The notes: generated from the letters alone by a model not told the origin. Shown: positions 4,356 to 36,384, numbered from the stretch's first letter. The stretch: 52,028 nucleotides of DNA from a virus (IMGVR_UViG_3300037189_013547:1-52028); one strand, 5' to 3'. Program-made: numbers and translations.

Positions 4356-4358
4356 AAT

Positions 4359-6140: not shown

Positions 6141-6141
6141 T

Positions 6142-6480: not shown

Positions 6481-6485
6481 CTTAT

Positions 6486-7262
6486 ATGTTTAGTAATGCA
6501 CAAGAAATGTATAATATTAGTGGCAGCGGAAATTATTTTTTCGACGCCAGTGGTCTAAGAAGGCAGGGTAGCGTCTTAAATAGAGAAGGTTTAGGATTCA
6601 TGTTTACTGATTATACCGGATATGGATCTAGTTCTAATAGTTCAAGCTTTAATTTCAATTCTGCTCCAACTCCATTTCAATATATAATAAGACCTTCTAG
6701 CGTATCTTCTATTTTTAGTAGTAATGCGTATCGTTATTATAATACTATGCAAGGTTTAGGTAGTGGGGTATATCAATATCCAGAAGCTCCAACACCACCA
6801 GAGTTAATTGTGCCGCCAGTTCCACCATTGCCGCCAGTAACTCCACCAGTAACGCCACCACCACCACCACCACCACCACCACCGCCACCACCGCCACCAC
6901 CGCCACCACCGCCACCACCAGAGCCAGAGCCTCAACCTCCCGCTCCACCTCCAGCCACATTGATTTCGTATGACGAATTAATAAATTCGCCAACAACTGT
7001 CGTTCCGGGCTATAACAATACTGATTCTCATTTCGGAATAAAAAAACATGTATCTATAGTAAATTATGAACTATTACGTGATAGTTTTCCAGAGTTATAC
7101 GCAAATGACGTATCTTTTAATATATGGACTATTAGATTTGTAACCGAGTGGTGGAAAGATCCTCCAGAATTAGTGGTTGTAAAGAAAAAGAAGGAAATCG
7201 ATGGGGGTGGATATGAGAGATATAGATTAATAGATGGAAAATGGACCCAAGTAGATGAATAG
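6486..7262 (+). CDS. Proline-rich structural-block protein with a 22-Pro tract
   Basis: The 258-residue protein has three parts. An N-terminal Ser/Asn/Gly-rich region (about 1-95) is followed by a proline-rich linker (about 97-155) with 22 uninterrupted prolines at residues 124-145. A C-terminal globular part (about 157-258) ends in a lysine-rich stretch. The proline tract would form a rigid polyproline-II rod, and translation through it should need host EF-P. The layout (small domain, rod, small domain) suits a spacer or bridging protein in a tail or fibre, but no family is recognised. The coding sequence of the tract is a CCA/CCG repeat prone to slippage. Confidence 0.55.
   Translation: MFSNAQEMYNISGSGNYFFDASGLRRQGSVLNREGLGFMFTDYTGYGSSSNSSSFNFNSAPTPFQYIIRPSSVSSIFSSNAYRYYNTMQGLGSGVYQYPEAPTPPELIVPPVPPLPPVTPPVTPPPPPPPPPPPPPPPPPPPPPPEPEPQPPAPPPATLISYDELINSPTTVVPGYNNTDSHFGIKKHVSIVNYELLRDSFPELYANDVSFNIWTIRFVTEWWKDPPELVVVKKKKEIDGGGYERYRLIDGKWTQVDE
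6855..6920 (+). repeat. Polyproline trinucleotide repeat
   Basis: Nine CCA codons are followed by four copies of CCG-CCA-CCA and a final CCA: 66 bases coding 22 prolines in frame. Length change in steps of three or nine bases would alter the rod length without shifting the frame. Confidence 0.95.
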
Positions 7263-7273
7263 CGAAAATAATT

Positions 7274-10200: not shown

Positions 10201-12061
10201 AATGTTATATATGATGAATAATTATCCAGATAAAGTACCAAGCGGGGTAAGAAATCTCTTAGTACCACAAGATTTAACACCGTTTATTTCTGAAAATGGC
10301 AGAGTGTCAGCTTATGTTAGATTTGATTGGAGTAACTATCTAAGCTTAGAAGGATTTTCTGCAAACGATTATACGCAACAGTCTATATCTACTGATGGAT
10401 TATTACAAGGAATGATGCCAGATATAGCTAATAACTTAGATAATGTAGGTCAAGATTTATCTTTTGCTGAGACTAAGGGGCTAGAAAGTGGAGTAAATAT
10501 AACCAATTGGACTTGTGCGTTTGTTAAGTGTGACCTTAGTGATAAATTCTATATGCCACCAAAAGCAACTCGCAGACAAATCAAACGTTTTGCTAGAGAG
10601 GTAATTGATATAGGTACTTTTGCTAAACCTAGACAATTATTTAATGAAGAAACATGTGCGTATGAAAATAGTTTTTCTTACTATCTAGCAAAATACATTC
10701 CTAAACCAAACGATGTTGGTGAAATGATACCAGTAACTGATTTTATTAAAATATATGAACCTATTTTTTCTGGTAATTTAATAGATACAAGAAAAGAAAA
10801 TTTGGATTACGATAATGTATATGCTTTAATTACTTTACCCGGTCGCCCCGTACCTCTAAAAGATATGAGATTTAGAGATGCTATGTATTTTAGTCAAAAT
10901 CCAGTTAAGATGAAGCACATTTTAACTCAAGACATTATAAAAGACCCTACCAATATGCTAGGACTTCAATTGCCAGCATTTGTGAAAAAACCCACTAATA
11001 TACTCAAAGATTATTGTTCAGGGTTTAGTGCTAATACTTTAACACAATCCTTTCACATGTACAAAGAAACAATGAAAGGAATGACATTTGGTTTGCCACA
11101 GAGAATGCATATTGCTGTTCCGTCGCCCGTCTATCCAGATTTAGTTTCGCTATCATTAGAGTCCAGAGAAAGATGTTACGGACCTTGGATTACAACATTA
11201 ATGAATCCTGGTGACTTAACTCCACAATTGGCTCAAGAGTTTGGTCTTTCACAATATAGAAATATTGGGGGGAAGTTAGAATACATACGCGATGAGAATT
11301 TAGCACCTTGGAATTTTTTTGGTCACGACTTAATGAATGAGGCTGGTAGACTAAAAGCATCTTATGGAAATAGTCTAATGTTGCATTCTGAACGCGGTGG
11401 ATTTGTTTATCCAGATGCTCCCAGTGGTATAAGTATTGGTAGAGCTTTAATGGAAAGTGGAGCATATGTAACAAGTATAGATGTAAGTGTCTCTACGGCT
11501 GGTGTACAAACAACAGTAAAACTGGATTCTTATACAGCACAATGGGGTAAATTAGACAGACAAAAAGAAATACAAATATCTCAAATAAGTCGTGAAAGAC
11601 AAAAGTTAAGAGATACAAAAAACCAATTTATTAGAAGAGGAATTGGTAAGGCTCAAACTTCTGTAAATTATGGTAATATTATAGGTTCTTTAGAAAAGTC
11701 TATTAATGATTCTATGAATAGAACAAAGTATAAAATTGGCAGTATTCAAACACAAAGTCAAGATAGATATAGAACTTTACCAAACAATCCTTCTTCTACA
11801 ATACAATTAAATAATCATCAATTTTATGTTGGAAATACTGACAATTTAGGTATAGTAGATGAACAACAGTTTTTCCAAGAATCTCAAAATGCTGTTATAG
11901 CACAAGAAAATCAACATGATATTATAGCAACTAGGAATCCGAATGCAAAAAATGGTGCTGTTAAAACTCAAATAGTCAATAATGAACATCGTCAATCACA
12001 ATATAAAGTAGATAGTGACCTTGCTAGCGAACAAGGATGGACTACCCCAGTAATATCTTAG
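7274..12061 (+). CDS. Giant baseplate-hub-like tail protein
   Basis: This 1595-residue protein is the largest in the window. Residues about 45-220 have the look of the first domains of phage baseplate hub proteins: a beta-rich segment (LDFSISAGYG), a PVFFTFGK strand, then FAFGGILQGWTQN and FTFNVNVVDPRQIL, matching the usual pattern in which an excursion is followed by a V-x-D-x-R-x-x-L strand. A second hub-like block follows with VSLLDFMQEICEIVNHELF. The rest is long and unassigned, with a charged helical segment near residue 1420-1480 (RQKEIQISQISRERQKLRD). Family assignment is from pattern memory only. The gene lies between a proline-rich protein and another giant virion-type gene, consistent with a baseplate or tail-tip assembly. 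Confidence 0.6.
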   Translation: MTKFNKKFPLGQYGIVPDSGYFALDPQFSGVRNLPANAAFVSSGSFPSSFSNATYDSYVQQTFLGATILDFSISAGYGDTASQLSVSVVNDEYNNSDGTPLGSGADVYHSGSGDKFNPPPIGSPVFFTFGKGNLVPVENIYQWQSSGLPYMDNWMSSMGLYFEPPNESGRYHFAFGGILQGWTQNRNINGFTFNVNVVDPRQILSSVKLILNNYAEGTYRTENLINVYGFLEHNPSTSLLTTLRGHYPESGILTKYFVVGVDGQYTGKFTYMGSPVSGLYDNYHKPNYHATIANGLPRNFPITGTGMSRRSAVGIPFYRIIDSISAQMRLFGDLPQEYIDNGFEVFIRFRGYNYIIDFGSLPTEYIPRLYYVDFEEVSLLDFMQEICEIVNHELFVSLLPVNGHPRYQYIKAWNKHCADSTDINIKNKIVAGIIRIDAIDKTPAQTYGRIAEYIRNLDQVYRDNGTLIDCKATNLSEEDRQKCLAKQTVTSSDIGFELTDVTTEKFVAGANEVNMYFFTGSCDRDTYQSTSQRALLQARQYTHDEMITQQILPYYGMLGFGENSAVTIPRGFGAYQQILLDATSLNVNGVGSYYVATEMELRCAIVSFERWKEFLLMYNDVYMESVEENDIVEGAALLATPQRGQALNPNLSNNYAVTVPRCIFESDRNYLEIDGLPASPCSPPYGYPLYYKRAMKIGIPEGGLTNVTANLTQLVTDLAKMRQEARENLNNSQQMRGKNWQQQITWWNGAFDTARDIVSSVSKSTRSDGVIDSIQSSFATFFNTMRTLDDDINNRNSPYREHIALIDDTMTSASKAISIMPRLARKQNENAKKVYDFVKNIAEECLGKKFLVKIPKYANSFYQDKVEFSSNNQEYRITKGPFGFKPRLMNSNFEINGVRYNTFNPLQSLMAQCPPMKSYLTSGTYDNVPIIGLLKDGALKSNYQPISDTIEFNYVPSTEGGFFDFDLYDNVFKSNEMLYMMNNYPDKVPSGVRNLLVPQDLTPFISENGRVSAYVRFDWSNYLSLEGFSANDYTQQSISTDGLLQGMMPDIANNLDNVGQDLSFAETKGLESGVNITNWTCAFVKCDLSDKFYMPPKATRRQIKRFAREVIDIGTFAKPRQLFNEETCAYENSFSYYLAKYIPKPNDVGEMIPVTDFIKIYEPIFSGNLIDTRKENLDYDNVYALITLPGRPVPLKDMRFRDAMYFSQNPVKMKHILTQDIIKDPTNMLGLQLPAFVKKPTNILKDYCSGFSANTLTQSFHMYKETMKGMTFGLPQRMHIAVPSPVYPDLVSLSLESRERCYGPWITTLMNPGDLTPQLAQEFGLSQYRNIGGKLEYIRDENLAPWNFFGHDLMNEAGRLKASYGNSLMLHSERGGFVYPDAPSGISIGRALMESGAYVTSIDVSVSTAGVQTTVKLDSYTAQWGKLDRQKEIQISQISRERQKLRDTKNQFIRRGIGKAQTSVNYGNIIGSLEKSINDSMNRTKYKIGSIQTQSQDRYRTLPNNPSSTIQLNNHQFYVGNTDNLGIVDEQQFFQESQNAVIAQENQHDIIATRNPNAKNGAVKTQIVNNEHRQSQYKVDSDLASEQGWTTPVIS

Positions 12062-12070
12062 GAACATAAA

Positions 12071-15000
12071 ATGAAAATTGGAATTCAAGCTCATGGTGAA
12101 AATGGCGCTCATTTATTTACTAATGATTCGCCAGAACTAGAATACGTTGGACTGTCTAGCTATAGCCTATATCAATTAAGTGGTATAGTTATGTCTAGCG
12201 CCGTTTTAAATCTTAAAGCTTCATCTAGAAATGTTATTTTTACAACTTTGATGGGTGAAACAGCGGATGGTGATGCAAAATATTTAAAATTTAATAAAGA
12301 TACTGGTGGATTTTCAGAAGTACAAATACCTAAAGCTAGAATAAAAAATCTTATTGAGTGGCACGAATATTTTAATGAAAATCCTAGATATATATCTACT
12401 CCAACTGGTGGATTTACTAGAACAGAAGCTAAAGATCACCTAGTTGATATTTCTAATAGTTTATCTGGATGCTTAACATTTCTAGTTAGTGGTGCTAATA
12501 TTCAGATTGATTATACTTTACCAGAAGGTAATGGTGGATGCCAAAAAGAATTTGCTACTTATATTAATTTACATTTCACTGCAAGGAATAATGACGATAC
12601 TAATCAGATAGTACAGAAATTTCACTCAATGGCAGGCATACCAAGCACTTCAGCCGGTACTACATATAGCTGGACAGGCACTCAAAAAGCTACATCTGAT
12701 AATCATCCCGGCGTTTTATCTCCAGTTCAAGATGGTGGTGAAGACAATACGGATAATATGATCGCTGCTCCTATCGCTAAATCTTATTGTTCTAATACTG
12801 GAAGGTGGGAATTTGGAACTCAGCAAATACTAGTAAAACTTTTAACTAATGTTGATCCTGTCGAAGAAACAGTTTTAGATGCAGAAACTTTTGATAATTT
12901 ATCTTTTGAAGAATTATCCAATCCCGGTTCTGCATTTTATTTAAGCAATTACAAAACAGGTTACGCATCTCCAATATACCCGCAGAATAAAAATCCTAAC
13001 CTTGCAATGCCAGCATTTGTTACTAAGTCTTGCGACAATAAAAATACAAAAGAAAAAATACAGGTTGTTAATAGAAGTACTAGACCATACGCTATTGGTG
13101 AAACCGCAAAAGCTTCATTAATATGTGGCGAGTGGTTATTATCACCACTGTCAGAGCCAAAACCACAAGTATTTACTCCAGTTATTAATAGGTGGCGCTT
13201 TCAAAAATTTATAGTTGATTCCGACAGTTATTTTAAAAACTATGCATACTATATGAATTTAGATTATGATGGTAAATTAAACAACCTCGAAGCAACACTT
13301 AGCAAGGACGTATCTCCAGAAACATATGAATTCAGTATGACAAGAATGTTTTTTATAGATATGTCTACTGTTACAAGCTTTGGCGGTCCCGCTCACTTAA
13401 ATACCGTCAACAACAAGACGAAAATAGCTAAAGCGAATTTAAATGCTGACAAGTCATTAGAAACATTACGATCTTGGACAGATGGTGAATGGAATGATTA
13501 TACTATTCCAAATAAGCTTGAAGAATTTAATAAAGGTAGTATTATTATACCATCAGATAGGTATTGGCAAAGTACTGCGGCAGATCAATTGGGGGATTGG
13601 ATGGGTGGCAATGGTCCTTATAATATTATTGGTAGAACTAATATTGCGGTAAATAATAACCCTAGCGAGGAAGATAAAGATAGTTGGGCGTATAAGTTTA
13701 ATCACTTTTGGGGACCAGTATTTAATGCTGGATATGATCCTAGTAAAATTGCTAGTATAAAAGATGGACAAGTATTTTTCAAATCTCATAAAAATAATTC
13801 TAAATATTTTAGTTCTTCTCCATCTCTATCTCTTGTATCAATACCACCAATTAATGATAATACTGTAGAAAAAAACATACAATATGACAGCGGTAGATTT
13901 ATGTTTGCTGATAGTCAAGATAGCAATTGGTCACAATTTCCAGCAGAAATGGCTCTTTTGGGTGGCCCTAATGCTAAGAATGGTGGGCCACAAGAGTGTT
14001 TTAATATAATTAGAAGTGGAATTTCACCCATATGCTCTGGCACTAGTAGTACTAGTCAAGCCAATAACTTTTATTCTTTAATGGGAACTGTTATGGGCTT
14101 GGATGCTAATGGTATTCCAGATCGTTGGGATTGGTTATATATTGATGACGATAATGAGGACGATCCCCTCGTAAATGATCTTTATGACTTAAAACCTAAT
14201 ACTTTGCAGTTAACCTTCATGCCCTTATCGGCTGAAATGGTTGGTAGTTCAGATAAGTTTTCGCAAAGTTTGTTGGAAGTTACTCTTGGTAGTAGAGGCG
14301 ATTTAAATCCAAGTATTAATATCTTAAGAAGATTATACATGACAGCTAGAGGTTTTGACGGCAATTTAGATTTAATTGCTGGTTTTGAGGCTGGATCTTT
14401 TTATAAATCCAAGTTTCCCTTTTTGAAAGAGGATTTCTGGTTAACTGGAACGGGTACTGATCAAACCTCAACATTACCTCATGTTTGGGGAACAAAGTTT
14501 TTCGAAAGAGAAAAGCAGCAAAATTTTAATAGCTTCAGATTAATGAAATCTTATAGTAATAGTAGTTCAGTAACAAGAATTTATGATGTTATTCCATACG
14601 ATTATGCCGTGAAGCAAACTGCTGGTCATTCTGCCGGAAGTCCTGGCATTTGGTATGCAAGCAGTCTACTTAACCAAGATGACGATTTTAGGAAAACTGG
14701 CGGATCTAAGGGCAATGCTGACTGTGTTGGTGTTATATGTGCTAAAGTTAGTATGTCTTGGAATCAATCGTCTATACCAATTAAAATTTCAGAAAGATTT
14801 GGCTTAAACGGCGTGGGCGTTACATTGACACCAACTGCTAATAATATGGTAACTTTTGGTATATTTGGACTAGTTAATCTACCAACCATTGGTCAATCAA
14901 CAAGGGTAACAGAGCCACAATGGGGTAGCACAAGAGATAGCGTTGATGGTTTGTATAGTTTTGCAACAAATGCTTTATATGCTAGAGTTTTTACACAGTG

Positions 15001-16090
15001 GCCTGAGAAGCAAACATTATTTGATGGTAGATATTTTGGAGTATTACATTTTCTACCGGGAGCTTTAAGTGGTCACGTTAATATAGACACAGAGATAAAA
15101 GATACTGGTATTACGCCTACTGGTACTTGGACTCCTTCGGTTGGCAGAACTAGCGCTTACGCTAGCCAGAGAACAGCCACTTTGCCACCCTATCAGCGCG
15201 CAGTTGATAAAATAACATCAGCAGTAGATTTTAGAATTCCAACATATGCCCATCCTAAAACTCCTTCCTCTGATAATATAATCTGTAGTGTCGGAACTAG
15301 TGACAGTATTGTTGATAGATGTGGCCCAGGTAGTAAAGTATTGCGCCCAGAGTCAGAGTGGCGAGTTAATCCTATTAGAAGGGGCCAGATGTTTGCTGTA
15401 GGAGCTAATACTCAGCGCGTATTTAGATATTTTAAGCGCGTAATAGGTGTTAGTAAAAATGTAACTCACTGGAAGTATGCACGTAAAGTTGATTCTAATG
15501 GAAGTACTGTTACGGGAGCTAGCGCCGATGATGGTCAAGGCAAAGATTATTCAGTAAAAGATATAATAGGCATAACTGGTGGGGCTGGAGATGGTGCAAA
15601 AATAGAAATTACATCCGTTGACACTACTGGTAAAGTTACCGGATTTATAGTTATTGATCAAGGAGAAGGTTATTTACCAGCCAATTTTAAGGATACTAGT
15701 TGGGATTCTGCTCTTGATAGAAAAGAAGACCCGTTAACAGTTCTTACTTCTATAAATATAAAAGTAAGAAATGCTAAAGCTACTGGATTAAAAGTTGGAC
15801 CTATTGTTGGTGAAGTCTATGATAGATTGATGGAAGATAAGGGTCCATTAGAAGTTTGTAAAACGACAAGATTATCAACACCAAGTGCTGCTGGAGAAAA
15901 TGGTATAATTCAGACAAATAGAACTACGCAACTTCCTATCAGTGCCTCAACTGGAGTCAAGCCTAATTATGATTTATTTTTTCATTATCATAATGATATA
16001 GGACATACTTTATCTGCTTGGAGAGAGTGGAGCGCACAAAAGGATAATACTAATGGCTTGGCTCAATATTGTTCAATCAATATTGGATAA
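12071..16090 (+). CDS. Giant virion-type protein, probably tail or fibre
   Basis: The gene encodes 1339 residues and starts nine bases after the previous stop, with TAGGAA as ribosome binding site. It is beta-rich and Asn/Ser/Gly/Thr-rich throughout, with no membrane segment. Near residues 1170-1215 there is a GGAGDGAKIEI...VTGFIVIDQGEGYL unit. This kind of Gly-rich repeat is common in phage tail and neck proteins and in fibre stalks. Scattered cysteines and no catalytic motif were noted. A tail-fibre or baseplate role is inferred from size, composition and position. The upstream half of a promoter-like element for the next gene lies at its 3' end. Confidence 0.6.
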   Translation: MKIGIQAHGENGAHLFTNDSPELEYVGLSSYSLYQLSGIVMSSAVLNLKASSRNVIFTTLMGETADGDAKYLKFNKDTGGFSEVQIPKARIKNLIEWHEYFNENPRYISTPTGGFTRTEAKDHLVDISNSLSGCLTFLVSGANIQIDYTLPEGNGGCQKEFATYINLHFTARNNDDTNQIVQKFHSMAGIPSTSAGTTYSWTGTQKATSDNHPGVLSPVQDGGEDNTDNMIAAPIAKSYCSNTGRWEFGTQQILVKLLTNVDPVEETVLDAETFDNLSFEELSNPGSAFYLSNYKTGYASPIYPQNKNPNLAMPAFVTKSCDNKNTKEKIQVVNRSTRPYAIGETAKASLICGEWLLSPLSEPKPQVFTPVINRWRFQKFIVDSDSYFKNYAYYMNLDYDGKLNNLEATLSKDVSPETYEFSMTRMFFIDMSTVTSFGGPAHLNTVNNKTKIAKANLNADKSLETLRSWTDGEWNDYTIPNKLEEFNKGSIIIPSDRYWQSTAADQLGDWMGGNGPYNIIGRTNIAVNNNPSEEDKDSWAYKFNHFWGPVFNAGYDPSKIASIKDGQVFFKSHKNNSKYFSSSPSLSLVSIPPINDNTVEKNIQYDSGRFMFADSQDSNWSQFPAEMALLGGPNAKNGGPQECFNIIRSGISPICSGTSSTSQANNFYSLMGTVMGLDANGIPDRWDWLYIDDDNEDDPLVNDLYDLKPNTLQLTFMPLSAEMVGSSDKFSQSLLEVTLGSRGDLNPSINILRRLYMTARGFDGNLDLIAGFEAGSFYKSKFPFLKEDFWLTGTGTDQTSTLPHVWGTKFFEREKQQNFNSFRLMKSYSNSSSVTRIYDVIPYDYAVKQTAGHSAGSPGIWYASSLLNQDDDFRKTGGSKGNADCVGVICAKVSMSWNQSSIPIKISERFGLNGVGVTLTPTANNMVTFGIFGLVNLPTIGQSTRVTEPQWGSTRDSVDGLYSFATNALYARVFTQWPEKQTLFDGRYFGVLHFLPGALSGHVNIDTEIKDTGITPTGTWTPSVGRTSAYASQRTATLPPYQRAVDKITSAVDFRIPTYAHPKTPSSDNIICSVGTSDSIVDRCGPGSKVLRPESEWRVNPIRRGQMFAVGANTQRVFRYFKRVIGVSKNVTHWKYARKVDSNGSTVTGASADDGQGKDYSVKDIIGITGGAGDGAKIEITSVDTTGKVTGFIVIDQGEGYLPANFKDTSWDSALDRKEDPLTVLTSINIKVRNAKATGLKVGPIVGEVYDRLMEDKGPLEVCKTTRLSTPSAAGENGIIQTNRTTQLPISASTGVKPNYDLFFHYHNDIGHTLSAWREWSAQKDNTNGLAQYCSINIG

Positions 16091-18010: not shown

Positions 18011-18778
18011 TCATAATTCAATTTCAATATAGCGATTAGATTCCTCTGGATAATTATCCTCAATATTCTTGAGTACGCTTAATAGAGATTGCTTTAGCTT
18101 GTCTTTATTAGCATACGTTAGATTGTAGTTAAGGTGCTTGATCCTTATCATAACAAAACCTTTACCTAAAACAAGCCCATTTTTTTCCATGTCAGACTTG
18201 ATTTGTTTTCTTAACTTTTCTTCACCCCATATAGGCTCAAAGTGAGAAGGCCCGTCTACCTCTATTATAGCCTTGAGTGCAGGAATGTACATATCCACTT
18301 CCAGCTTATTGCCCGTCACAAGATTGTCAATATGGTATAGAGCATTGTATCCATTTTGTTTTAATATTGATCTCAGATATTTTTCTAACTTCGATCCCTC
18401 TTTACTTGCACGTTGTATTTCTACTAATGCTCTTTGACGCATTTTTTCTTTATCTATATCAGATAAATTATTCCATCTTTCACGCGCCTTATTGCATCGT
18501 TCTTCATATTTTTCTGAAGTTATATCTTCCCAACTTTTACTCAATCCTTTACTGATTTTTAATTTTTCTACATCAGTTCTTTTTCTACCAAGGGTTGGTA
18601 TTACAGAAATTCCCTTTTCTAATGCAATTTTTTGAGCTTCGCTCTTATCTCTAAGTTCTATACCTAGTTTCTTGAGCCTTCTCCTAACTTTATTAGGATA
18701 TGTATTAAGAATCCTAGATATTTCATAAGGACTATTACCTTCATTATACAGTTTAATCAAGTCACTATCTATTATCAT
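18011..18778 (-). CDS. Vsr-like (PD-(D/E)XK) free-standing homing endonuclease
   Basis: The protein has 255 residues. Residues 1-40 form a helix-turn-helix of homeodomain type (SPYEISRILNTYPNKVRRRL), followed by charged DNA-binding helices. The C-terminal half holds a Vsr/DUF559-type nuclease core: KLEVDMYIPALKAIIEVDG followed by PSHFEPIWG, with the catalytic Asp in the LEVD strand and Glu in IIEVDG. The ribosome binding site AAAGGTGG lies inside the end of the previous gene, and the start overlaps that gene by 14 bases. The gene separates the glycosyltransferase island from the annealing protein and was probably inserted there. Role: cutting an endonuclease-free allele so that the gene is copied into it. 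Confidence 0.75.
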   Translation of the reverse strand: MIIDSDLIKLYNEGNSPYEISRILNTYPNKVRRRLKKLGIELRDKSEAQKIALEKGISVIPTLGRKRTDVEKLKISKGLSKSWEDITSEKYEERCNKARERWNNLSDIDKEKMRQRALVEIQRASKEGSKLEKYLRSILKQNGYNALYHIDNLVTGNKLEVDMYIPALKAIIEVDGPSHFEPIWGEEKLRKQIKSDMEKNGLVLGKGFVMIRIKHLNYNLTYANKDKLKQSLLSVLKNIEDNYPEESNRYIEIEL

Positions 18779-28867: not shown

Positions 28868-30427
28868 CTATGTCTCCATTATTTTTTCAATTATTAACGA
28901 ATCGTTTTTACCCTTGGTATTACAACACAAGACTAAATTATTACCTTCATAAAGAACGTACTTATACTTTTCTTTGATTGACGGAAAAGCTACAACATTA
29001 TCTAGTATGCAAGTATCATCTTCAATAGTCAAAAATGCCATTTTTTGTCCTTTAGATTCTCCATTTTTTATAGTGTATTCTGATATGAGTTTTATATTGG
29101 CTACTATGCAAATATTACCACCCTTTTTGCCATTTACAATTTCTTTACACGTTGTATTAGCTAAAGAAGTGTCGGCTGTTTCTACTTTTGTTAAAGTAAT
29201 AGGGCAACCTAGAAATTTGATTTCTTGATCAATAATCCACTTAATACTATCTTCTAGAATGTATGGTGGATTAAGCAGTAGTTGAATTTCATTTTCTACA
29301 ACTTGCTGCCTTTCTTTTTTACTAGTTCCCCCACCAAGCTTTTTCATTGGTGCTAATGATTTAAGGGCTTCTAGTAAATTAGGCCATAGTATTGTATTAT
29401 ACTCCTGTGATAACCATTTTTGCTCTGCCGAAGTCAAAGTTCTAAAAATTTCATATTCATATAATGCCCTTGTTCTACTAATAGACCCATTAAAGTCTCT
29501 AAAAAATCCTACAGAAGCTAAAGACTTAAATGCTGTAGAGCTTATCTTTTCCCCCAGATATAGCAATATTTCCAGCCATGTAAACTTTGTTATCTTCTTA
29601 CCCTTTTCTAATTCCGCCGAATTTATTGCCGCTATTACAGCATCCCCAGTTTTACCAGAAAGAGATTTAATATCTTTGATGCCAAAGAAAACTTTTCCGT
29701 CTTTTATGTTAAACTTTTCTTCGAAATTGTTTAGACTAGGAGTTGCTGCTTGAATATCAAATAGTTTTGCTTCTGAGACTAATTCATATATTTCTTGATG
29801 TGGATCTTGTTTTTCTATAGCGTGATACAAATATGATAAGAAAAATTCTTTTGTATTATGAGCTTTATAGTAGGCACTCCAATATGAACAAACTGCGTAT
29901 GAAACGCTGTGAGATTTATTAAAGGCATATCTTGATGACTTTTCGATCCATCCGAATATCTGCTCTGCCTCTTCCTTAGAAACGATCCCAACGCGCTCTG
30001 CGCCCGCTATAAATGATTTTTTTACTTCATTCATGAGATCGGCTTTCTTTTTTCCAATGGCCTTACGAAGAACGTCAGCTTCTTGTAGGTTAAATCCCGC
30101 TATTTTCTCTGCAATACGCATGGACTGTTCTTGATAAACTAAAACTCCATATGTTGGCTTTAGTATATCTTCTAATGATGAATGTAGGTATGTAACTTCT
30201 TCTCTACCATGTTTTCTATCTACGTAGTGTTGAGTCATAGACTTTCCATCTAACATAGACTTAAGAGTTCCGGGTCTGATGATGGCTATAAGTGCTGATA
30301 ACTCTTCTATATTATTTGGTGCTAATTTTTTTGACCAAGATTTACCTAGATTGCTTTCAAGCTGAAAGACGCCTTTGGTTCTTCCTTCAGCAAAAAGCTT
30401 CCAAGTTTTTTCATCATTATATTCCAT
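28868..30427 (-). CDS. dnaE: DNA polymerase III alpha, C-terminal fragment
   Basis: The gene encodes 519 residues and begins within the polymerase fingers region: TKGVFQLES at about 18, ALIAIIRPGTL at about 45, YGVLVYQEQSMRIA at about 93, RKAIGKKK, and SRYAFNKSHSVSYA at about 165. A helix-hairpin-helix/OB-fold tail follows (GQKMAFLTIEDDTC, KYKYVLYEGN). It lacks PHP and the catalytic aspartates, which are on the other two pieces. It has its own start (TAATG overlap with the HNH stop, AGGA ahead), and no intein sequence precedes EYNDEKTWKLF. So it must join the spliced N-terminal part without a covalent link, or by an unseen route. No obvious beta-clamp motif was found. Confidence 0.9.
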   Translation of the reverse strand: MEYNDEKTWKLFAEGRTKGVFQLESNLGKSWSKKLAPNNIEELSALIAIIRPGTLKSMLDGKSMTQHYVDRKHGREEVTYLHSSLEDILKPTYGVLVYQEQSMRIAEKIAGFNLQEADVLRKAIGKKKADLMNEVKKSFIAGAERVGIVSKEEAEQIFGWIEKSSRYAFNKSHSVSYAVCSYWSAYYKAHNTKEFFLSYLYHAIEKQDPHQEIYELVSEAKLFDIQAATPSLNNFEEKFNIKDGKVFFGIKDIKSLSGKTGDAVIAAINSAELEKGKKITKFTWLEILLYLGEKISSTAFKSLASVGFFRDFNGSISRTRALYEYEIFRTLTSAEQKWLSQEYNTILWPNLLEALKSLAPMKKLGGGTSKKERQQVVENEIQLLLNPPYILEDSIKWIIDQEIKFLGCPITLTKVETADTSLANTTCKEIVNGKKGGNICIVANIKLISEYTIKNGESKGQKMAFLTIEDDTCILDNVVAFPSIKEKYKYVLYEGNNLVLCCNTKGKNDSLIIEKIMET

Positions 30428-30762
30428 TATTTTTTTCCTAGTAAATAATTCAAAGCGTTTACCACACCCTCTATATTATCTCCAAGCTTACCAAGTCCAG
30501 TATTACAACGCTCACATATCCACCCTCTGAACCTATCGGTTTCGTGATCATGATCTAAACACCATTTAAGTGGAACCTTTTTACAACACTCACACAATTC
30601 TGGCTTATCTGGCGCATTTTTATGCAAATCTCTCCTAATAGAAGAATGTTTCTTTATGCAACTCCTACATCGCATATCCAACTTATCTTTGTACATGCTA
30701 TGTTTAGGAAATTGATCTAAAGACTTTTTTAATTTACAGTAAATGCATACTTTATTTGACAT
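30427..30762 (-). CDS. HNH endonuclease, recombination endonuclease VII type
   Basis: The start ATG 30762 gives 111 residues and overlaps the exonuclease end by 11 bases. Cysteine pairs CIYCKLKK and CRSC bind one zinc, and CECC with CERC bind another. The core LKWCLDHDHETDRFRGWICERCNTGLG matches the endonuclease VII family, with the His-Asp-His and the terminal Asn of the beta-beta-alpha-metal site. It lies immediately before the C-terminal polymerase fragment, so it is likely a free-standing homing endonuclease connected with the second break of the polymerase gene. It could alternatively resolve branched DNA, but its size and location fit a mobile gene better. Confidence 0.8.
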   Translation of the reverse strand: MSNKVCIYCKLKKSLDQFPKHSMYKDKLDMRCRSCIKKHSSIRRDLHKNAPDKPELCECCKKVPLKWCLDHDHETDRFRGWICERCNTGLGKLGDNIEGVVNALNYLLGKK

Positions 30763-31432
30763 AAAGATTACCATTAGCAAAAGCTTTGTCAAATTCTATA
30801 TTTTGATAAACGGCTCTATGAGTTTTTAGCAACTTAATGAATATATTTGCAGTGTCTTTTACGTCTTGTAGTGCATCGTGAGCATTTTCTGAACTCAATC
30901 CCATCTTTTCTCTTAGTGAATCCATGCTAATAGATTTAATACTAGGGTCTGCTTCCGTCCACATAAAAACATTATCCATTAAATCTACTTTGTAAACTTT
31001 ACTAAATAACTTTTGTTGATCTTTGGTCTTATCCCAAGGCCCAAATTCTTGACATAGCCTATTAACAATAATCAAGTCGAAGCCTATGATATTATAGCCA
31101 ACTGGTATAGGATTAAAAAATGGCTCACCTTTCCAATTGTATTGATCTACAAACTTTGTGAATTTTGTCCACACAGATTTTAAAGCTGGTGCTTCTGCTA
31201 GCTTTTCTCTATTTTTACCAGTTATCTTTAACGCCCCATCTTCAATTGGGTCTACGCCAGCCGCCACTGCTTCCTCATCATCAAGTATTGGTTTTATCTC
31301 ACTATTAAATGTACCCTTTACGGATAAATTTCTACCGTCTAGTGCAATAGCAGCAATTTGTGTAGGTTGAGTTTTATGAGGATTTCTACTACCCGTTTCA
31401 AAATCAAAAATGATATAGTCCCTGTTAGCCAT
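30752..31432 (-). CDS. DnaQ-like 3'-5' exonuclease (DEDDh)
   Basis: The protein has 226 residues. Exo I is IIFDFETGSRNP near residue 7 (Asp and Glu ligands). Exo II is PVGYNIIGFDLIIVNRL near 110. Exo IIIepsilon is SENAHDALQDVKDTANIF near 183, with the catalytic His and last Asp (H-x5-D), defining the DEDDh class of the polymerase III epsilon subunit. Role: proofreading for the phage polymerase. The ribosome binding site TAGGAGA before ATG is strong. It lies between two polymerase pieces, which fits joint inheritance with the polymerase. Confidence 0.9.
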   Translation of the reverse strand: MANRDYIIFDFETGSRNPHKTQPTQIAAIALDGRNLSVKGTFNSEIKPILDDEEAVAAGVDPIEDGALKITGKNREKLAEAPALKSVWTKFTKFVDQYNWKGEPFFNPIPVGYNIIGFDLIIVNRLCQEFGPWDKTKDQQKLFSKVYKVDLMDNVFMWTEADPSIKSISMDSLREKMGLSSENAHDALQDVKDTANIFIKLLKTHRAVYQNIEFDKAFANGNLYVK

Positions 31433-31441
31433 ATTTATCTC

Positions 31442-32095
31442 CTATTGTAAATTTTGTGAATCTTCTATTATTTTCTTACAGTCCTTATAGGAGCATTCTA
31501 TCTTTTCAATCCTATTGTCAAGCATATTTTTGTGAATATACCAATCTTCAATAGAATTATGCCCATTCAATAAAACGTCTGCACATAATAATTTATATCC
31601 ATTAGAAACAAATTTTTCTCTTGAAATTTCACGCAGTAGTTTAGATTCTTTTTGACTCTTTTCATTAGACCAAGCTGGTTTCGATTCGTAATGAAAGTAA
31701 TTATGTTCAAATGTTATGACATTAAATTGACATAATGACAAATCCATATCATGAAGCACCTTCATTGTTGCATCGTCTACATCAAATGATAAGTAATCTA
31801 TAACTTGTGGAGCCTTACATTCTCTTAGTATATCATTGATATTTTTATTAAATAAGTCGGCATGAATTAACTTACATTTTCTGTATATTGAAGCTTCATT
31901 TATGTAATCAATATCACAGTCTATTGCAATACCATTCCAACCAAGATGTTCAAAATAATATGTATTACTATAAAAGCCATTATATTGACCTCTTAAGCCA
32001 CCTGTTCCAGCACCTATGTCTAGAAAATATCCATTCTTTTTATTTTTAGTAATGATATCTACAAAATTATCCTGACACACTTGAGCGTTATACAT
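31442..32095 (-). CDS. FkbM-family SAM-dependent methyltransferase
   Basis: The 217-residue protein has an intact SAM motif I, GYFLDIGAGTGG at about residues 22-33, preceded by CQDNFVDIITKNKKN. It then has GWNGIAIDCDIDYINEA with the acidic ribose-binding residue, and VIDYLSFDVDDATMKVL, the post-II region typical of FkbM proteins. FkbM enzymes methylate hydroxyls of sugars and polyketides. In this context a sugar made by the nearby transferases is a likely acceptor, which is inference. Its start lies inside the end of the middle polymerase fragment (eight-base overlap), so it forms the front of the cassette that interrupts the polymerase. Confidence 0.8.
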   Translation of the reverse strand: MYNAQVCQDNFVDIITKNKKNGYFLDIGAGTGGLRGQYNGFYSNTYYFEHLGWNGIAIDCDIDYINEASIYRKCKLIHADLFNKNINDILRECKAPQVIDYLSFDVDDATMKVLHDMDLSLCQFNVITFEHNYFHYESKPAWSNEKSQKESKLLREISREKFVSNGYKLLCADVLLNGHNSIEDWYIHKNMLDNRIEKIECSYKDCKKIIEDSQNLQ

Positions 32096-32906
32096 GTTGT
32101 ACCTTTTTTATATACATGATTTTATCTAGCAAAGTCAAACCTAATACATCAAACTTTACATGACCTAGAGCTTCTAGGTCTACCATTTCTAATCCTGCAA
32201 TTTTTTCTGATGAACCCTTTTGTTTGACCATAGGACATACTTTGTATAGTGGCTCTTTAGATATGACAACACCAGCAGCGTGTTTACCTTGAGTTTTAAA
32301 CGTGCCTTCTAACTTAATTGCCTGTTCGAAGTATTCAGCATAGTCTCCATCTAATGATCCATCATCATTTATTCTACAAAAATCTTGAAGCTCATCTGCG
32401 TTATTTATCAACGCCCACCTAATAATAGACCTATCATCGTCATCCATTTCTGCCAACTGATCTGATATTTCTGCTTCATTTGGTATAATTTTTGTTATTG
32501 CATTCATTTCCGCAAAAGAACAAGCTTCATTTACTCTCAATACTTCTTTTATGGCACTTCTGCCCTGTAGTCTCCCAAACGTAATCATCTGACTAACCTT
32601 ATCGTGACCATACTTATCTTTAAGATATTTGATGACATCATCTCTATGATTAGCGGGAACATCCATGTCTATATCTGGCAAAGAAATATGATCTTCTGTG
32701 TTTCTACCAGCATTATAGAATCTAGCAAACAAGAGATCAAATTCTATGGGGTCTATTTGAGTAATACCAATTAAATATGATATTAAACAACCAGCCGCTG
32801 AATTATGCACACCAAGACCTTCTACATTATATGTGTGGCTATTTTCAACAGATAAGTCGTGAACTTTTCCTTTGTATTTAATTATTTGTTTTTTTGTAAG
32901 TTTCAT
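32088..32906 (-). CDS. dnaE: DNA polymerase III alpha, middle fragment with C-intein
   Basis: The gene encodes 272 residues. Residues 1-35 are a C-terminal split-intein half. From Ser36 the polymerase continues as SAAGCLISYLIGI, then SLPDIDMDVPANHRDDV with the two catalytic aspartates, ITFGRLQGRSAIKEV, TFKTQGKHAAGVVIS and HVKFDVLGLTLLDKI with the third catalytic Asp. So this short piece carries the whole catalytic palm triad. It ends abruptly after YIKKVQHV, before the fingers region, which is encoded 1.7 kb further on. AGGA lies about nine bases before ATG, inside the end of the endonuclease gene. Confidence 0.92.
   Translation of the reverse strand: MKLTKKQIIKYKGKVHDLSVENSHTYNVEGLGVHNSAAGCLISYLIGITQIDPIEFDLLFARFYNAGRNTEDHISLPDIDMDVPANHRDDVIKYLKDKYGHDKVSQMITFGRLQGRSAIKEVLRVNEACSFAEMNAITKIIPNEAEISDQLAEMDDDDRSIIRWALINNADELQDFCRINDDGSLDGDYAEYFEQAIKLEGTFKTQGKHAAGVVISKEPLYKVCPMVKQKGSSEKIAGLEMVDLEALGHVKFDVLGLTLLDKIMYIKKVQHV
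32802..32906 (-). other. Split intein, C-terminal half (polymerase III alpha)
   Basis: It spans residues 1-35 of the middle polymerase piece. Block F (VHDLSVENSHTYNVEG) is followed by block G (LGVHN) and then Ser as first C-extein residue. The penultimate His and terminal Asn needed for Asn cyclisation and the +1 Ser nucleophile are all present. A 35-residue C-half is typical of natural split inteins. Confidence 0.93.
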
Positions 32907-33678
32907 TGTGAATATTCCTAGCTGTTTTGTAAAAAATTTTTACAGCATCATCATTATCAAAAATAACTATGTAACTATCAAATTGTTGTCGTGCGGCTTC
33001 AATCTTTAAGATATTTCTTGCATAGTTTTTTCTATACCAAAGTCCACTCCCTTTAATTTCAACAATATCATTTTGATTAATAATAAAATCTGGATAATAT
33101 TTTCTATCAACCCCACTCTCATCTACATATTTTACTGGATCAAGATCATATCTTTTTACCAATATGTTTTCATGCTCACACCATAATACGAACGACAATT
33201 CTAATGCGCTATCATAATATATATTATTATAAACACCCTTTAAGCCTCCACGCCCAAATCCAATCTTAACATTGTTGATATTATTTAAATTATTTTGAGC
33301 TTTTTTGGCAAAAGCTTCATCATTTTTCCATTTTTCTTTTAAAAGCGACGATGCTAAATTGCGCCTTTCATGATTCCAGCTTCTTCTTACCCCATTTCTG
33401 TTTTTTTGTAGTTGCTCTGGTCTATTTTGTGCAATTTTTTGTGATTGTGAATTTTTTATTATCCATTTGTCATCTTCTTTGGTGTTAATAATTAACCAGC
33501 ATTTACCACAAGTTTGCCATAGGTGCTTTTTATCTAATTTATTTTTCCTATTTCTCATAAATTTTTTAACAGATGAATACTCAAAGTTAGTGCCACACTT
33601 TGTGCAATAGCCACTAATGGGTACATTGCTAATAGATTTAGTATTAAACTGTATTTTTTCTAGCTCTGTATAATTCAT
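32878..33678 (-). CDS. PD-(D/E)XK homing endonuclease between the intein halves
   Basis: The start is ATG 33678 (266 residues) with AGGAGG six bases ahead; an earlier in-frame start lacks this. An N-terminal zinc-finger-like region has CTKCG and CGKC about 45 residues apart. A basic middle (NRNGVRRSWNHERRN) follows, then GRGGLKGVYNNIYYDSALEL and the nuclease core YYPDFIINQNDIVEIKGSG. The Asp of YPDF and the Glu and Lys of EIKG are the PD-(D/E)XK catalytic set. It lies exactly between N-intein and C-intein, the layout reported for fractured phage genes. It overlaps the C-intein gene by 29 bases. Its binding site is inside an inverted repeat. Confidence 0.8.
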   Translation of the reverse strand: MNYTELEKIQFNTKSISNVPISGYCTKCGTNFEYSSVKKFMRNRKNKLDKKHLWQTCGKCWLIINTKEDDKWIIKNSQSQKIAQNRPEQLQKNRNGVRRSWNHERRNLASSLLKEKWKNDEAFAKKAQNNLNNINNVKIGFGRGGLKGVYNNIYYDSALELSFVLWCEHENILVKRYDLDPVKYVDESGVDRKYYPDFIINQNDIVEIKGSGLWYRKNYARNILKIEAARQQFDSYIVIFDNDDAVKIFYKTARNIHNETYKKTNN

Positions 33679-33680
33679 AT

Positions 33681-33723
33681 AGCCCTCCTGTGTCTTTATA
33701 CATATAAAGTCCTTGGCGGGGCT
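33681..33723 (-). promoter_or_regulatory. Inverted repeat over the endonuclease ribosome binding site
   Basis: On the minus strand AGCCC (33723-33719) can pair with GGGCT (33685-33681), which overlaps the Shine-Dalgarno AGGAGGG. Between them is a perfect hairpin CTTTATA-TG-TATAAAG (33709-33694). A TATAAAG promoter-like element forms the inner arm. Read-through RNA could hide the binding site, and a transcript begun inside could not. Confidence 0.45.
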
Positions 33724-33730
33724 TCTTTTA

Positions 33731-34852
33731 TTATATCTCACACACATTGTCACTTTCTGTAAGATATTGAGCTTCCACCCAACCCCTGTTGGTGGTTAGA
33801 AATTTATGATCTTTAGTGCATCTTATTACAACATCACCAAACCATAGCTCCAAAATATCTTCATCAATATCATAGACAAGAGTATCGTACACAGTTTCAG
33901 CATTTCCATTACAATCAATAATCTTGTCATTGATTTGAATGTCACATATGTTTTTCATTAAACCATTTGACATCTTTACTCTTGTATCTGGTAAAAAACA
34001 GCCTCTTCCCGGCCCAGACAACCAACCATTGTCATGAACGTGTTTTATTATGTCTTGCACGATTAAGAAATATCCGAAGAGATTTGCGTTTTTGATTACG
34101 TCAAACTCTTCTTTGAATCTATCTAGATACTTCTGTTTGTTTACTTCGTCAGACACTTTCCCCTTATCAATTAGTAATGATTTCCAGCCTTTTCTACATA
34201 GCTCTTTTAAATACTCTTCTTCTGACAAATTATTTGGGCATTTGAATTTTGGCAGAACTGGCTTATTTAGGATATCATAATCTTCGCACTGATCGTAAAC
34301 ATCTTCAAGGACGCGAGACATTTTACCAGCTACTACGTATTTATTCTCATCTGTAAAAAACTGAGACACGTTAGGATCAAGCTCATTCTTGCGTATTTGC
34401 TTTGCAATACTTGGCAGTGTACTCTTTAGTTCTGAGCATATTAATATTCTATGCAAATTGGCTTGATCTTTGTAGCAATAGAAACTTGTAGGTATGCCAA
34501 TATCATGCTCAAGATATATAAGATTATTCTGTTTTAATAACCCCTTAATGTGTTTAATATCTATGTTATTGTCATCATCTATTAATGACATAATTTCAAT
34601 GAGATTATTCCAGCCGTTCTTATTTTTGGCGTATAAGTTATAGCCGTCGAATGAACAACCCAAAATAGGTTTAATCCCAACTTCTTTGCAAGCTTTATAA
34701 AAAGCTACACATCCAGATATGGTTTTATAGTCAGTAATACCACAAGCTGGATAACCATTCTCTTTACAAAGCTTGGCTAGTTCTTTGGGCTTAGAAAAGC
34801 CTTTCAGCAAACTGTAATGCGTATAATTATTTAATGGAAACCAATTCAACAT
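33731..34852 (-). CDS. dnaE: DNA polymerase III alpha, N-terminal fragment with N-intein
   Basis: The gene encodes 373 residues, with GAGG six bases ahead of ATG. Residues 1-284 are polymerase. A PHP domain opens with NNYTHYSLLKGFSKPKELA and ENGYPACGITDYKTISG, with the usual first His of the H-x-H pair missing. Then come IKPILGCSF, the NNLSEEEYLKELC segment, and FGYFLIVQDIIKHV, ending in WLSGPGRG. This is the phosphate-binding GPGRGSAAG loop, cut after its third Gly. Residues 285-373 are the N-intein. The full polymerase from three pieces would be about 1040 residues, close to the family size. The preceding gene has its own terminator, so this gene may need its own promoter or read-through. 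Confidence 0.93.
   Translation of the reverse strand: MLNWFPLNNYTHYSLLKGFSKPKELAKLCKENGYPACGITDYKTISGCVAFYKACKEVGIKPILGCSFDGYNLYAKNKNGWNNLIEIMSLIDDDNNIDIKHIKGLLKQNNLIYLEHDIGIPTSFYCYKDQANLHRILICSELKSTLPSIAKQIRKNELDPNVSQFFTDENKYVVAGKMSRVLEDVYDQCEDYDILNKPVLPKFKCPNNLSEEEYLKELCRKGWKSLLIDKGKVSDEVNKQKYLDRFKEEFDVIKNANLFGYFLIVQDIIKHVHDNGWLSGPGRGCFLPDTRVKMSNGLMKNICDIQINDKIIDCNGNAETVYDTLVYDIDEDILELWFGDVVIRCTKDHKFLTTNRGWVEAQYLTESDNVCEI
33734..34000 (-). other. Split intein, N-terminal half (polymerase III alpha)
   Basis: It comprises 89 residues beginning with Cys1 (CFLPDTRVKMSNG, block A), followed by IQINDKIIDCNGNAETV, and block B with T-x-x-H (IRCTKDHKFLTTN). Essential Cys1, Thr and His are intact. 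There is no endonuclease domain; the frame stops after SDNVCEI. Confidence 0.93.
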
Positions 34853-35368: not shown

Positions 35369-35611
35369 TTATAGCTCTGTTCGCCCATTATTGCAGTTTC
35401 TAGATTTTCTGTACTGATCAAAAGATTCATTAAGTTTTCTAATCAATAATGTTCCAGCCTCTTCAAAAAAGCAAGGGAAAAATCCGTGAATAATTAGTAA
35501 CAATCCAGCTTCTAAACATACCAGACCATGACCTACCGCAAACTTTAAATGTTCACAATAAGTCATATTATTATCTTTTAGGTGCTTAGTCCAGTCTTTG
35601 TAAAGCTTCAT
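35369..35611 (-). CDS. DUF6356-like small membrane protein
   Basis: ATG 35611 makes an ATGA overlap with the GIY-YIG stop (80 residues); an ATG three codons earlier is possible. The pattern WTKHLKDNNMTYCEHLKFAVGHG, then a hydrophobic helix LVCLEAGLLLIIHGFFPCFF and EEAGTLLIRKL, is that of DUF6356 proteins as I recall them. These are small one-helix membrane proteins of unknown function found in bacteria and aquatic phages. It probably sits in the host inner membrane. Confidence 0.65.
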   Translation of the reverse strand: MKLYKDWTKHLKDNNMTYCEHLKFAVGHGLVCLEAGLLLIIHGFFPCFFEEAGTLLIRKLNESFDQYRKSRNCNNGRTEL

Positions 35612-36327
35612 ATTATCCATAATCTATATACTATAGCCTTGCTTTGACTTATAGTTAATCCAGACTTTAGAGAGTATTCATTAATTATATCTTGTTTTTT
35701 TCTTGTATCTTTATTTGCAATAGATTTAAATATCTCACTTTTTCTTCTTTTTGTTAAGCCTATATATTGCGGCCTATACAGTCTAATCCAATCTTTTAAC
35801 TTCGATCTTGATATTCCGTTCCTGTTCGCAAAATCTTGCTGTGACTCCAGTGGATTTTTAGCCCAATCTTCTATTAATTTTATTATTTCATCATATGGTT
35901 TAGTTAAATTTCTATCTCTATTAGCTAATCTTACGTCTTTTTGCTCGTTAATTTTTTTTAAAGCCTTTGATATTTTCTGTTTAGTTGTATCAGTTTTTGG
36001 TCTATGGCATAGAGAAAGATCATATGTAGACGATAAAATATTTGTTAATGTACCTCCCTCTGACTTTTTTCCAAACCATCTTATTAAGAATTCTTCTCTA
36101 TCTTTTGATTCTTGACTATTTTCTGTTGTCCATAATATTTTTAATTCAAAATCATATTTAGCTATTATATTTAATTTGAATGGATTAGATTTATCTAATT
36201 TATGATTTTTGCTTCTGTGATATAAATTTTTTTCGTTACTAGCTATTCCTATATAAAATAAATGTTCATCTATAGTATTAGTAGCATAAGTTATGTTCTT
36301 TTTGTATAGGCCATAAATATAGTTCAT
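35608..36327 (-). CDS. GIY-YIG homing endonuclease
   Basis: ATG 36327 has GGAGGAT eight bases ahead and gives 239 residues. The nuclease domain fills about residues 1-100: NYIYGLYKKNITYAT then LFYIGIASNEKNLYHRSKNH, giving the two-part GIY-YIG signature with the catalytic Tyr and Arg, and a likely metal-binding Glu in DREEFLIRWFG. The C-terminal part has two DNA-recognition helices (QQDFANRNGISRSKLKDWI and KSGLTISQSKAIVY). It is free-standing and inserted between the DUF5872-like and DUF6356-like genes. Its ribosome binding site overlaps an inverted repeat with a promoter-like loop, as described for I-TevI. Confidence 0.85.
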   Translation of the reverse strand: MNYIYGLYKKNITYATNTIDEHLFYIGIASNEKNLYHRSKNHKLDKSNPFKLNIIAKYDFELKILWTTENSQESKDREEFLIRWFGKKSEGGTLTNILSSTYDLSLCHRPKTDTTKQKISKALKKINEQKDVRLANRDRNLTKPYDEIIKLIEDWAKNPLESQQDFANRNGISRSKLKDWIRLYRPQYIGLTKRRKSEIFKSIANKDTRKKQDIINEYSLKSGLTISQSKAIVYRLWII

Positions 36328-36330
36328 TTT

Positions 36331-36372
36331 GGTGATCCTCCAGTTTATTATACACATAATTGAAGGATCGCC
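36331..36372 (-). promoter_or_regulatory. Hairpin with promoter-like loop before the GIY-YIG gene
   Basis: On the minus strand GGCGATCC (36372-36365) pairs with GGATCACC (36338-36331) with one C-A mismatch; the second arm shares bases with the Shine-Dalgarno GGAGGAT. The 26-base loop contains TGTGTATAATA (36356-36346), whose first ten bases are identical to the string upstream of the gene at 16133. Long operon RNA would mask the binding site, and RNA begun in the loop would lack the first arm. Confidence 0.5.
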
Positions 36373-36384
36373 TAAAATAACCAA

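What the first reader, a model, noticed from the sequence alone, without database searches (positions are those of the whole stretch)
32802..34000. Split intein in DNA polymerase III alpha at the GPGRG|SAAG loop
Seen: the N-terminal gene ends with an 89-residue N-intein whose Cys1 follows GPGRG, and the middle gene starts with a 35-residue C-intein ending HN before SAAG. Cys1, T-x-x-H, penultimate His, terminal Asn and +1 Ser are all intact. Established: cyanobacterial DnaE split inteins break the protein later, with a Cys at +1. Here the break is upstream of all catalytic aspartates and uses Ser. Inference: the polymerase is inactive until trans-splicing joins the pieces, and this could be a new fast-splicing natural split intein.
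Basis: partly seen in the sequence, partly recalled or inferred. Interest (0 to 1): 0.85.

Follow-up and report, generated by a model that had tools for sequence, protein, structure and literature searches.

The report
Split intein in phage DNA polymerase
A phage makes the front part of its DNA polymerase as two proteins that a self-splicing element (a split intein) should join, with a cutting-enzyme gene lodged between them; this is a new example of a known kind of mobile element, in a polymerase that is also broken a second time without any intein.

Summary
An 89-residue N-intein starts with Cys1 after GPGRG (33734-34000, minus strand). A 35-residue C-intein ends HN before Ser+1 (32802-32906). 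All class-1 splicing residues are present. The same site is occupied in at least 26 viral loci. Cys1, TxxH, HN and Ser+1 are intact in 26/26; 25 are split and one is a contiguous 129-residue mini-intein that folds as an intein. Contiguous inteins also sit here in Bacillus phage G, Lactococcus phage 949 and a Clostridium dnaE.

Its 3' end overlaps the C-intein start and contains that gene's ribosome-binding site. Close relatives (98% identical) have an empty, contiguous site. Distant phages carry closely related inteins, and some keep only a fossil of the endonuclease. This is the 'fractured gene' arrangement of Dassa et al. 2009: a mobile split intein plus endonuclease.

Splicing alone does not restore a one-chain polymerase. 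The fingers half is a third gene, separated from the palm in about 75 relatives, with no intein at that break. Trans-splicing speed and endonuclease activity remain untested.

The parts
34001..34852 (-). N-extein of DnaE: PHP domain and start of the palm, 284 aa, ending GPGRG
   Evidence: Pfam PHP 1.4e-18, DNA_pol3_alpha 1.2e-11
33734..34000 (-). N-intein, 89 aa, Cys1 and CTKDH (TxxH); stop codon at 33731-33733
   Evidence: Hint/intein profiles, PDB intein matches, alignments A1 and A5
33679..33730 (-). Non-coding leader between the N-intein stop and the endonuclease start; promoter-like/hairpin element (CTTTATATGTATAAAG) and ribosome-binding site, similar between loci
   Evidence: Alignment of 14 spacers, fold -12.6 kcal/mol; function not tested
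32878..33678 (-). Free-standing endonuclease gene, 266 aa: Cys-rich zinc-ribbon-like N-terminus, helical linker, PD-(D/E)XK core (ALE160LS, PD197F, E207IK209)
   Evidence: A4: 15 homologues; weak TnsA-like/Phage_endo_I/DUF7487 matches; AF2 pLDDT 89
32878..32906 (-). 29-nt overlap: the endonuclease 3' end contains the start codon of the C-intein gene, and the sequence just upstream its Shine-Dalgarno (GCTAGGAA)
   Evidence: Same overlap frame in 19/19 loci examined, 17-41 nt
32802..32906 (-). C-intein, 35 aa, block F VHDLSV, ending VHN
32091..32801 (-). Middle extein of DnaE (palm), 237 aa, starting at Ser+1; holds the catalytic motifs PDIDMD and KFDVLGL
   Evidence: DNA_pol3_alpha positions 66-260, 1.4e-50
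30752..31432 (-). RNase T/epsilon-like 3'-5' exonuclease gene sitting in the second (intein-less) break of dnaE
   Evidence: PF00929 4.7e-14, phrog_192 'DNA polymerase exonuclease subunit'
28868..30427 (-). Third DnaE piece, 519 aa: fingers and helix-hairpin-helix; separate chain in about 75 relatives
   Evidence: DNA_pol3_finger 1.1e-47; junction table

Best explanation
This is a naturally split, trans-splicing class-1 intein that, with the endonuclease gene lodged between its halves, forms a mobile 'fractured gene' element in a phage dnaE. Two precursors are made: (PHP + start of palm)-IntN and IntC-(palm). The acidic IntN and basic IntC associate into a Hint fold. Cys1 and Ser+1 carry out the acyl shifts, Asn cyclises, and a continuous PHP-palm chain with ...GPGRG-SAAG... 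results, restoring the Gly-Ser nucleotide-binding motif. The spliced chain then works together with the separately encoded fingers chain, without a covalent link. The PD-(D/E)XK endonuclease cuts intein-less dnaE at the empty GPGRG|SAAG-coding site, so that repair copies the whole element. When the endonuclease decays, its last ~20 codons remain because the ribosome-binding site and start of the C-intein gene lie in them, so the intein stays split. Shown here: anatomy, intact residues, empty sites, horizontal transfer, decay series, overlap. Inferred: splicing, cleavage, homing, non-covalent assembly.
For: Splicing residues intact in 26/26 loci, 25 split. A contiguous 129-aa version at the same site (L109) is modelled at pLDDT 95 and matches gp41-1 (TM 0.85, 3.9e-9) and NrdJ-1. 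Purifying selection, window versus L084: dN/dS N-intein 0.11, C-intein 0.04, flanking palm 0.04. Charge complementarity: IntN -9, IntC +3; IntC never net negative and IntN always negative in 19 loci. Empty site in L005 (98% identical on both sides) and L006-L008. Intein presence needs at least 7 changes on the extein tree. L085: N-intein 76% and endonuclease 68% identical while the extein is 56%; its intein rejects grouping with its extein kin (p-AU 0.003). Decay series: L085 internal stop, L093 truncated, L084 and L092 deleted to a 3' fossil. Overlap with the C-intein start in 19/19. Only one dnaE set per contig, up to 182 kb.
Against: No biochemical evidence. The endonuclease model has no significant fold match (best E 0.2; the list includes XisH, an alkaline exonuclease and homing endonuclease I-Bth0305I, all PD-(D/E)XK by own knowledge) and its target site is unknown. 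The window's N-intein has an unusual C-terminus (DNVCEI) and an extra cysteine (C19), of unknown effect. The tree-test groups were chosen after seeing the identities.
Confidence: 0.88

Rival explanations
1. The halves no longer splice; they assemble without a covalent bond, as the two NrdA pieces of phage Aeh1 do after insertion of the mobE homing endonuclease, and the intein pieces are relics.
For: The same dnaE is also broken between palm and fingers with no intein and both pieces stay intact, so this polymerase tolerates a break; Aeh1 nrdA-a/nrdA-b is a precedent (PMC3653736).
Against: All four splicing residues kept in 26/26 loci, low dN/dS of both intein halves, and the intein interrupts the Gly-Ser nucleotide-binding motif, where 124 extra residues should block activity.
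Confidence: 0.06
2. An ordinary contiguous intein with an in-frame endonuclease, made to look split by sequencing or assembly frameshifts.
For: Contiguous inteins exist at this site (L109, Bacillus phage G, Clostridium), and one locus has the endonuclease fused to the N-intein (L099).
Against: Stop codon, leader and overlapping out-of-frame start recur in 19 separate loci with the same relative frame; another IMG/VR contig is identical here (L003).
Confidence: 0.02
3. A cyanobacterial-type DnaE split intein (AEY|CFN site) moved to a new place.
For: Same host protein family and detectable similarity to the cyanobacterial DnaE inteins (1e-4 to 1e-5).
Against: Different insertion site and +1 residue; closer to NrdJ-1 and gp41-1 in sequence or fold; same-site relatives are contiguous inteins of phages and Clostridium.
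Confidence: 0.02

Closest known systems
'Fractured genes' of Dassa et al. 2009 (NAR 37:2560; split intein + free-standing endonuclease gene, mainly phage)
   Same: Conserved DNA-synthesis gene broken by a split intein with an endonuclease gene between the halves and a control element in front of it; phage origin
   Different: Here DnaE at GPGRG|SAAG; the endonuclease carries a PDF...ExK motif, not the Vsr-like EDxHD motif (recalled) of half of those loci; overlap with the C-intein gene. The paper is not held here, so whether DnaE is among its eight gene types is unknown
gp41-1 and NrdJ-1 natural split inteins
   Same: Fold (TM 0.85-0.87), split position, about 90-100/35-40 residues, Ser+1
   Different: Host protein and insertion site; 22-26% identity to the L109 relative; speed unknown
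Cyanobacterial DnaE split intein (Ssp/Npu)
   Same: Natural split intein in a DNA polymerase III alpha subunit
   Different: Different site (GPGRG|S versus AEY|CFN), Ser instead of Cys at +1, halves close together with an endonuclease gene between them rather than far apart on the chromosome
Contiguous DnaE inteins at the same site: Bacillus phage G gp329, Lactococcus phage 949 ORF116, Clostridium sp. K13
   Same: Exact insertion site, Cys1...HN|S
   Different: One open frame across the intein; those of 949 and Clostridium are of the size of inteins with an embedded endonuclease
Genes-in-pieces NrdA of Aeromonas phage Aeh1 (mobE insertion)
   Same: Like the second break: essential enzyme in two chains, nuclease gene between, no intein or intron
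   Different: DnaE, break between palm and fingers; the gene in the gap in all relatives is the proofreading-type exonuclease

Membership tests
Natural split intein (class 1, Hint fold) | Cys/Ser1 directly after the N-extein | tested here: met
   Cys1 after GPGRG; 26/26 loci
Natural split intein (class 1, Hint fold) | Block B TxxH, terminal HN and Cys/Ser/Thr+1 | tested here: met
   CTKDH, VHN, Ser+1; 26/26
Natural split intein (class 1, Hint fold) | Hint fold | tested here: met
   On the contiguous same-site relative L109: pLDDT 95, PDB inteins at about 1e-8; not modelled on the window's own two chains
Natural split intein (class 1, Hint fold) | Halves on separate polypeptides | tested here: met
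   Stop after N-intein, separate ATG for C-intein in another frame; 25/26 loci
Natural split intein (class 1, Hint fold) | Trans-splicing activity | not testable with these tools
   Needs co-expression and mass spectrometry
Fractured gene (Dassa 2009) | Free-standing endonuclease gene between the two split halves | tested here: met
   32878-33678; homologues in the same place in most split loci
Fractured gene (Dassa 2009) | Mobility: empty sites and horizontal transfer | tested here: met
   L005-L008 empty; p-AU 0.003 for L085
EDxHD/Vsr-like homing endonuclease (I-Bth0305I) | E-D-x-H-D catalytic motif (as recalled) | tested here: not met
   Invariant E160, PD197F, E207-x-K209 instead; I-Bth0305I only at E 0.29
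PD-(D/E)XK nuclease superfamily | E...PD...(D/E)xK motif on the common alpha/beta core | tested here: inconclusive
   Motif invariant in 15 homologues and matching order of helices and strands in the model, but no significant family or fold match
Homing endonuclease | Cuts the empty allele of its own insertion site | not testable with these tools
   Needs purified protein and cleavage assay
Cyanobacterial DnaE split intein | Insertion at the (A/E)Y|CFN site, Cys+1 | tested here: not met
   Site is GPGRG|SAAG; the YAFNKSHS site in the third piece is empty

The most novel reading that the evidence does not exclude
The catalytic core of this phage replicase is built from three separately translated chains joined in two different ways: PHP and palm covalently by trans-splicing through the Gly-Ser motif, and palm and fingers without a covalent bond. 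In addition, the overlap of the endonuclease gene with the C-intein's start codon and ribosome-binding site acts as a ratchet: once the endonuclease gene has split an intein, its later decay leaves the intein permanently split. That would explain how endonuclease-less natural split inteins arise.
Probability: 0.45. Interest if true: 0.7.

Novelty: new member of a known kind. Interest (0 to 1): 0.5.

Why it matters
It adds a large set of same-site natural split inteins in a phage replicative polymerase, with every stage present: empty, contiguous, split with endonuclease, split with broken endonuclease, split with only a fossil. That makes the origin of natural split inteins directly testable. 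The inteins are candidates for protein-ligation tools. The conserved palm/fingers break raises a separate question: whether a C-family polymerase can work as two or three chains.

Tried and rejected
Rfam and tRNA scans of the window found nothing, so no known self-splicing intron accounts for either break. Sequence search of the PDB with the endonuclease: no hit. tblastn of the endonuclease in INPHARED phages: none. The leader in front of the endonuclease was folded in 10 loci: hairpins differ between loci, so I do not claim a conserved RNA structure. A second split intein at the palm/fingers break was considered and rejected: the middle gene ends within about 5-30 residues of the conserved LDKIM and the third gene starts directly with extein sequence. 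An exonuclease-fingers fusion was considered and rejected. A dN/dS for the L085 endonuclease was spoilt by an internal stop and is not used. Dassa 2009 and Carvajal-Vallejos 2012 are not held, so their gene lists could not be checked.

Full report
OBSERVATION. N gene 33731-34852 (-) encodes 284 residues of DnaE (PHP, start of palm) ending ...WLSGPGRG, then CFLPDTRVKMSNG...IRCTKDHKFLTTNRGWVEAQYLTESDNVCEI and a stop. Middle gene 32088-32906 (-) encodes MKLTKKQIIKYKGKVHDLSVENSHTYNVEGLGVHN followed by SAAGCLISYLIG... and both catalytic motifs (PDIDMD, KFDVLGL). Cys1, TxxH, HN and Ser+1 are all there, and 32802-34000 is exactly Cys1 to Asn. By residue count against E. coli DnaE (own knowledge: D401, D403), Ser+1 corresponds to S364 of the Gly363-Ser364 nucleotide-binding motif, so the intein sits inside the active site and the unspliced halves should be inactive (inference).

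THE INTEIN IS REAL. A profile of four same-site N-inteins finds solved inteins by sequence alone (2LWY 3.1e-8, NrdJ-1 1.1e-7, cyanobacterial DnaE about 2e-5). A profile-driven scan of viral contigs and later calls gave 26 loci with an intein at the same DnaE site; Cys1, TxxH, HN and Ser+1 are intact in 26/26 and 25 are split (a few of these loci are close relatives). One, L109, is a contiguous mini-intein of 129 residues; it is modelled at pLDDT 95 and its best PDB match is gp41-1 (TM 0.85, E 3.9e-9), with NrdJ-1 close behind. Window against L084: dN/dS 0.11 for the N-intein, 0.04 for the C-intein, 0.04 for the palm. N-inteins are net negative (-3 to -14) and C-inteins neutral to positive (0 to +5) in 19 loci; opposite charges on the two fragments are reported for Npu DnaE (PMC11923092).

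THE GENE BETWEEN THE HALVES. Fifteen homologues, the window's included (the others 24-53% identical to it), share a Cys-rich N-terminus (in most), a helical middle and an invariant E...YxPDF...ExK set, the signature of PD-(D/E)XK nucleases. Pfam matches are weak (TnsA-like, Phage_endo_I, DUF7487). The model is confident per residue (pLDDT 89) but pTM is 0.47, and no fold match is significant; the first three are PD-(D/E)XK enzymes by own knowledge, among them the homing endonuclease I-Bth0305I (E 0.29). Most split loci carry this gene in the same place; L124 instead has a NUMOD4/HNH protein fused to the C-intein, and L099 has the endonuclease fused to the N-intein. A leader of about 55 nt between the N-intein stop and the endonuclease start is similar between loci.

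THE OVERLAP. In all 19 loci examined, the open frame of the endonuclease (or of its remnant) runs 17-41 nt past the start codon of the C-intein gene, always in the same relative frame; the codons just before (GCTAGGAA and similar) look like that gene's ribosome-binding site. L084 and L092 have lost the endonuclease except a short 3' remnant, which keeps the same frame and stop; L092 also keeps the first bases of the leader, so this is an internal deletion. L085 has an internal stop and L093 a truncated endonuclease, while their intein halves are intact. I infer that the overlap prevents a clean loss and leaves the intein split.

MOBILITY. L005 is 98% identical on both sides and reads GPGRG-SAAG without interruption; L006-L008 are also empty. 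On a tree of 69 exteins, intein presence needs at least 7 changes. L085 resembles the window in intein (76%) and endonuclease (68%) but only 56% in the extein, and its intein rejects grouping with its extein relatives (p-AU 0.003, groups chosen after inspection). Contiguous inteins at the same site occur in Bacillus phage G gp329, Lactococcus phage 949 ORF116 and Clostridium dnaE, so the site itself is a recurrent intein target. PHROG 13169 and 21652, both 'DNA polymerase', match through the N- and C-intein halves, so other phage genomes with the arrangement are probably already in databases, not named as such.

THE SECOND BREAK. The middle gene ends a few residues after LDKIM and the fingers gene starts directly with extein sequence; between them lie an exonuclease gene and, in the window, also a FkbM-type methyltransferase and an endonuclease VII-like HNH gene. 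All junctions examined in relatives with at least 52% palm identity are broken in the same way with the exonuclease in between, except L097 and L165, where palm and fingers are one open frame and the exonuclease lies upstream of dnaE. Contigs of 132-167 kb contain only this one DnaE. So the two-chain palm/fingers polymerase is the only one on those contigs, and I infer that it works without a covalent link, as the NrdA pieces of phage Aeh1 do (PMC3653736).

COMPARISON. The arrangement is that of the 'fractured genes' of Dassa et al. 2009 (content recalled; the paper is not held); the PolB of Pseudomonas phage MIJ3, with an HNH endonuclease gene between the halves, is another published case (PMC6892783). 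It differs from the cyanobacterial DnaE split intein in site and +1 residue. The EDxHD motif of the Vsr-like homing endonucleases (recalled) is not met.

VERDICT. Observation confirmed; interpretation right about the split intein but incomplete: it missed the endonuclease and the empty sites, and trans-splicing joins only two of the three polymerase pieces.

Noticed in passing
30427-32088 and relatives: dnaE is broken between palm and fingers with a 3'-5' exonuclease gene in the gap in about 75 related loci, with no intein or intron; unbroken in L097 and L165. A C-family polymerase that seems to work as two chains.
   Followed up: partly
L167 3265-6865; L172 1810-5390: Isolated phages Cellulophaga phi13:1 and Tenacibaculum Larrie have DnaE in two adjacent ORFs; in phi13:1 the break is just before the catalytic PDIDTDF motif, with extra tails at the break.
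   Followed up: partly
35608-36384: GIY-YIG plus helix-turn-helix protein, phrog 'homing endonuclease', a little upstream of dnaE.
   Followed up: no
18011-18778: HNH homing-endonuclease-like gene near glycosyltransferase-like genes.
   Followed up: no
30427-30792: Endonuclease VII-like HNH gene directly in front of the fingers gene, present in only some relatives; a candidate for the agent of the second break.
   Followed up: partly
31442-32095: FkbM-type methyltransferase inserted in the second dnaE break; some relatives have a 43-46% identical copy some 2 kb downstream of the fingers gene instead.
   Followed up: partly
105-16090: Four very large plus-strand proteins (593-1595 aa); no PHROG match for any of the four.
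   Followed up: no
L109 (182,840-base contig): Contiguous 129-residue mini-intein at the same DnaE site, with the rest of dnaE further interrupted downstream.
   Followed up: partly
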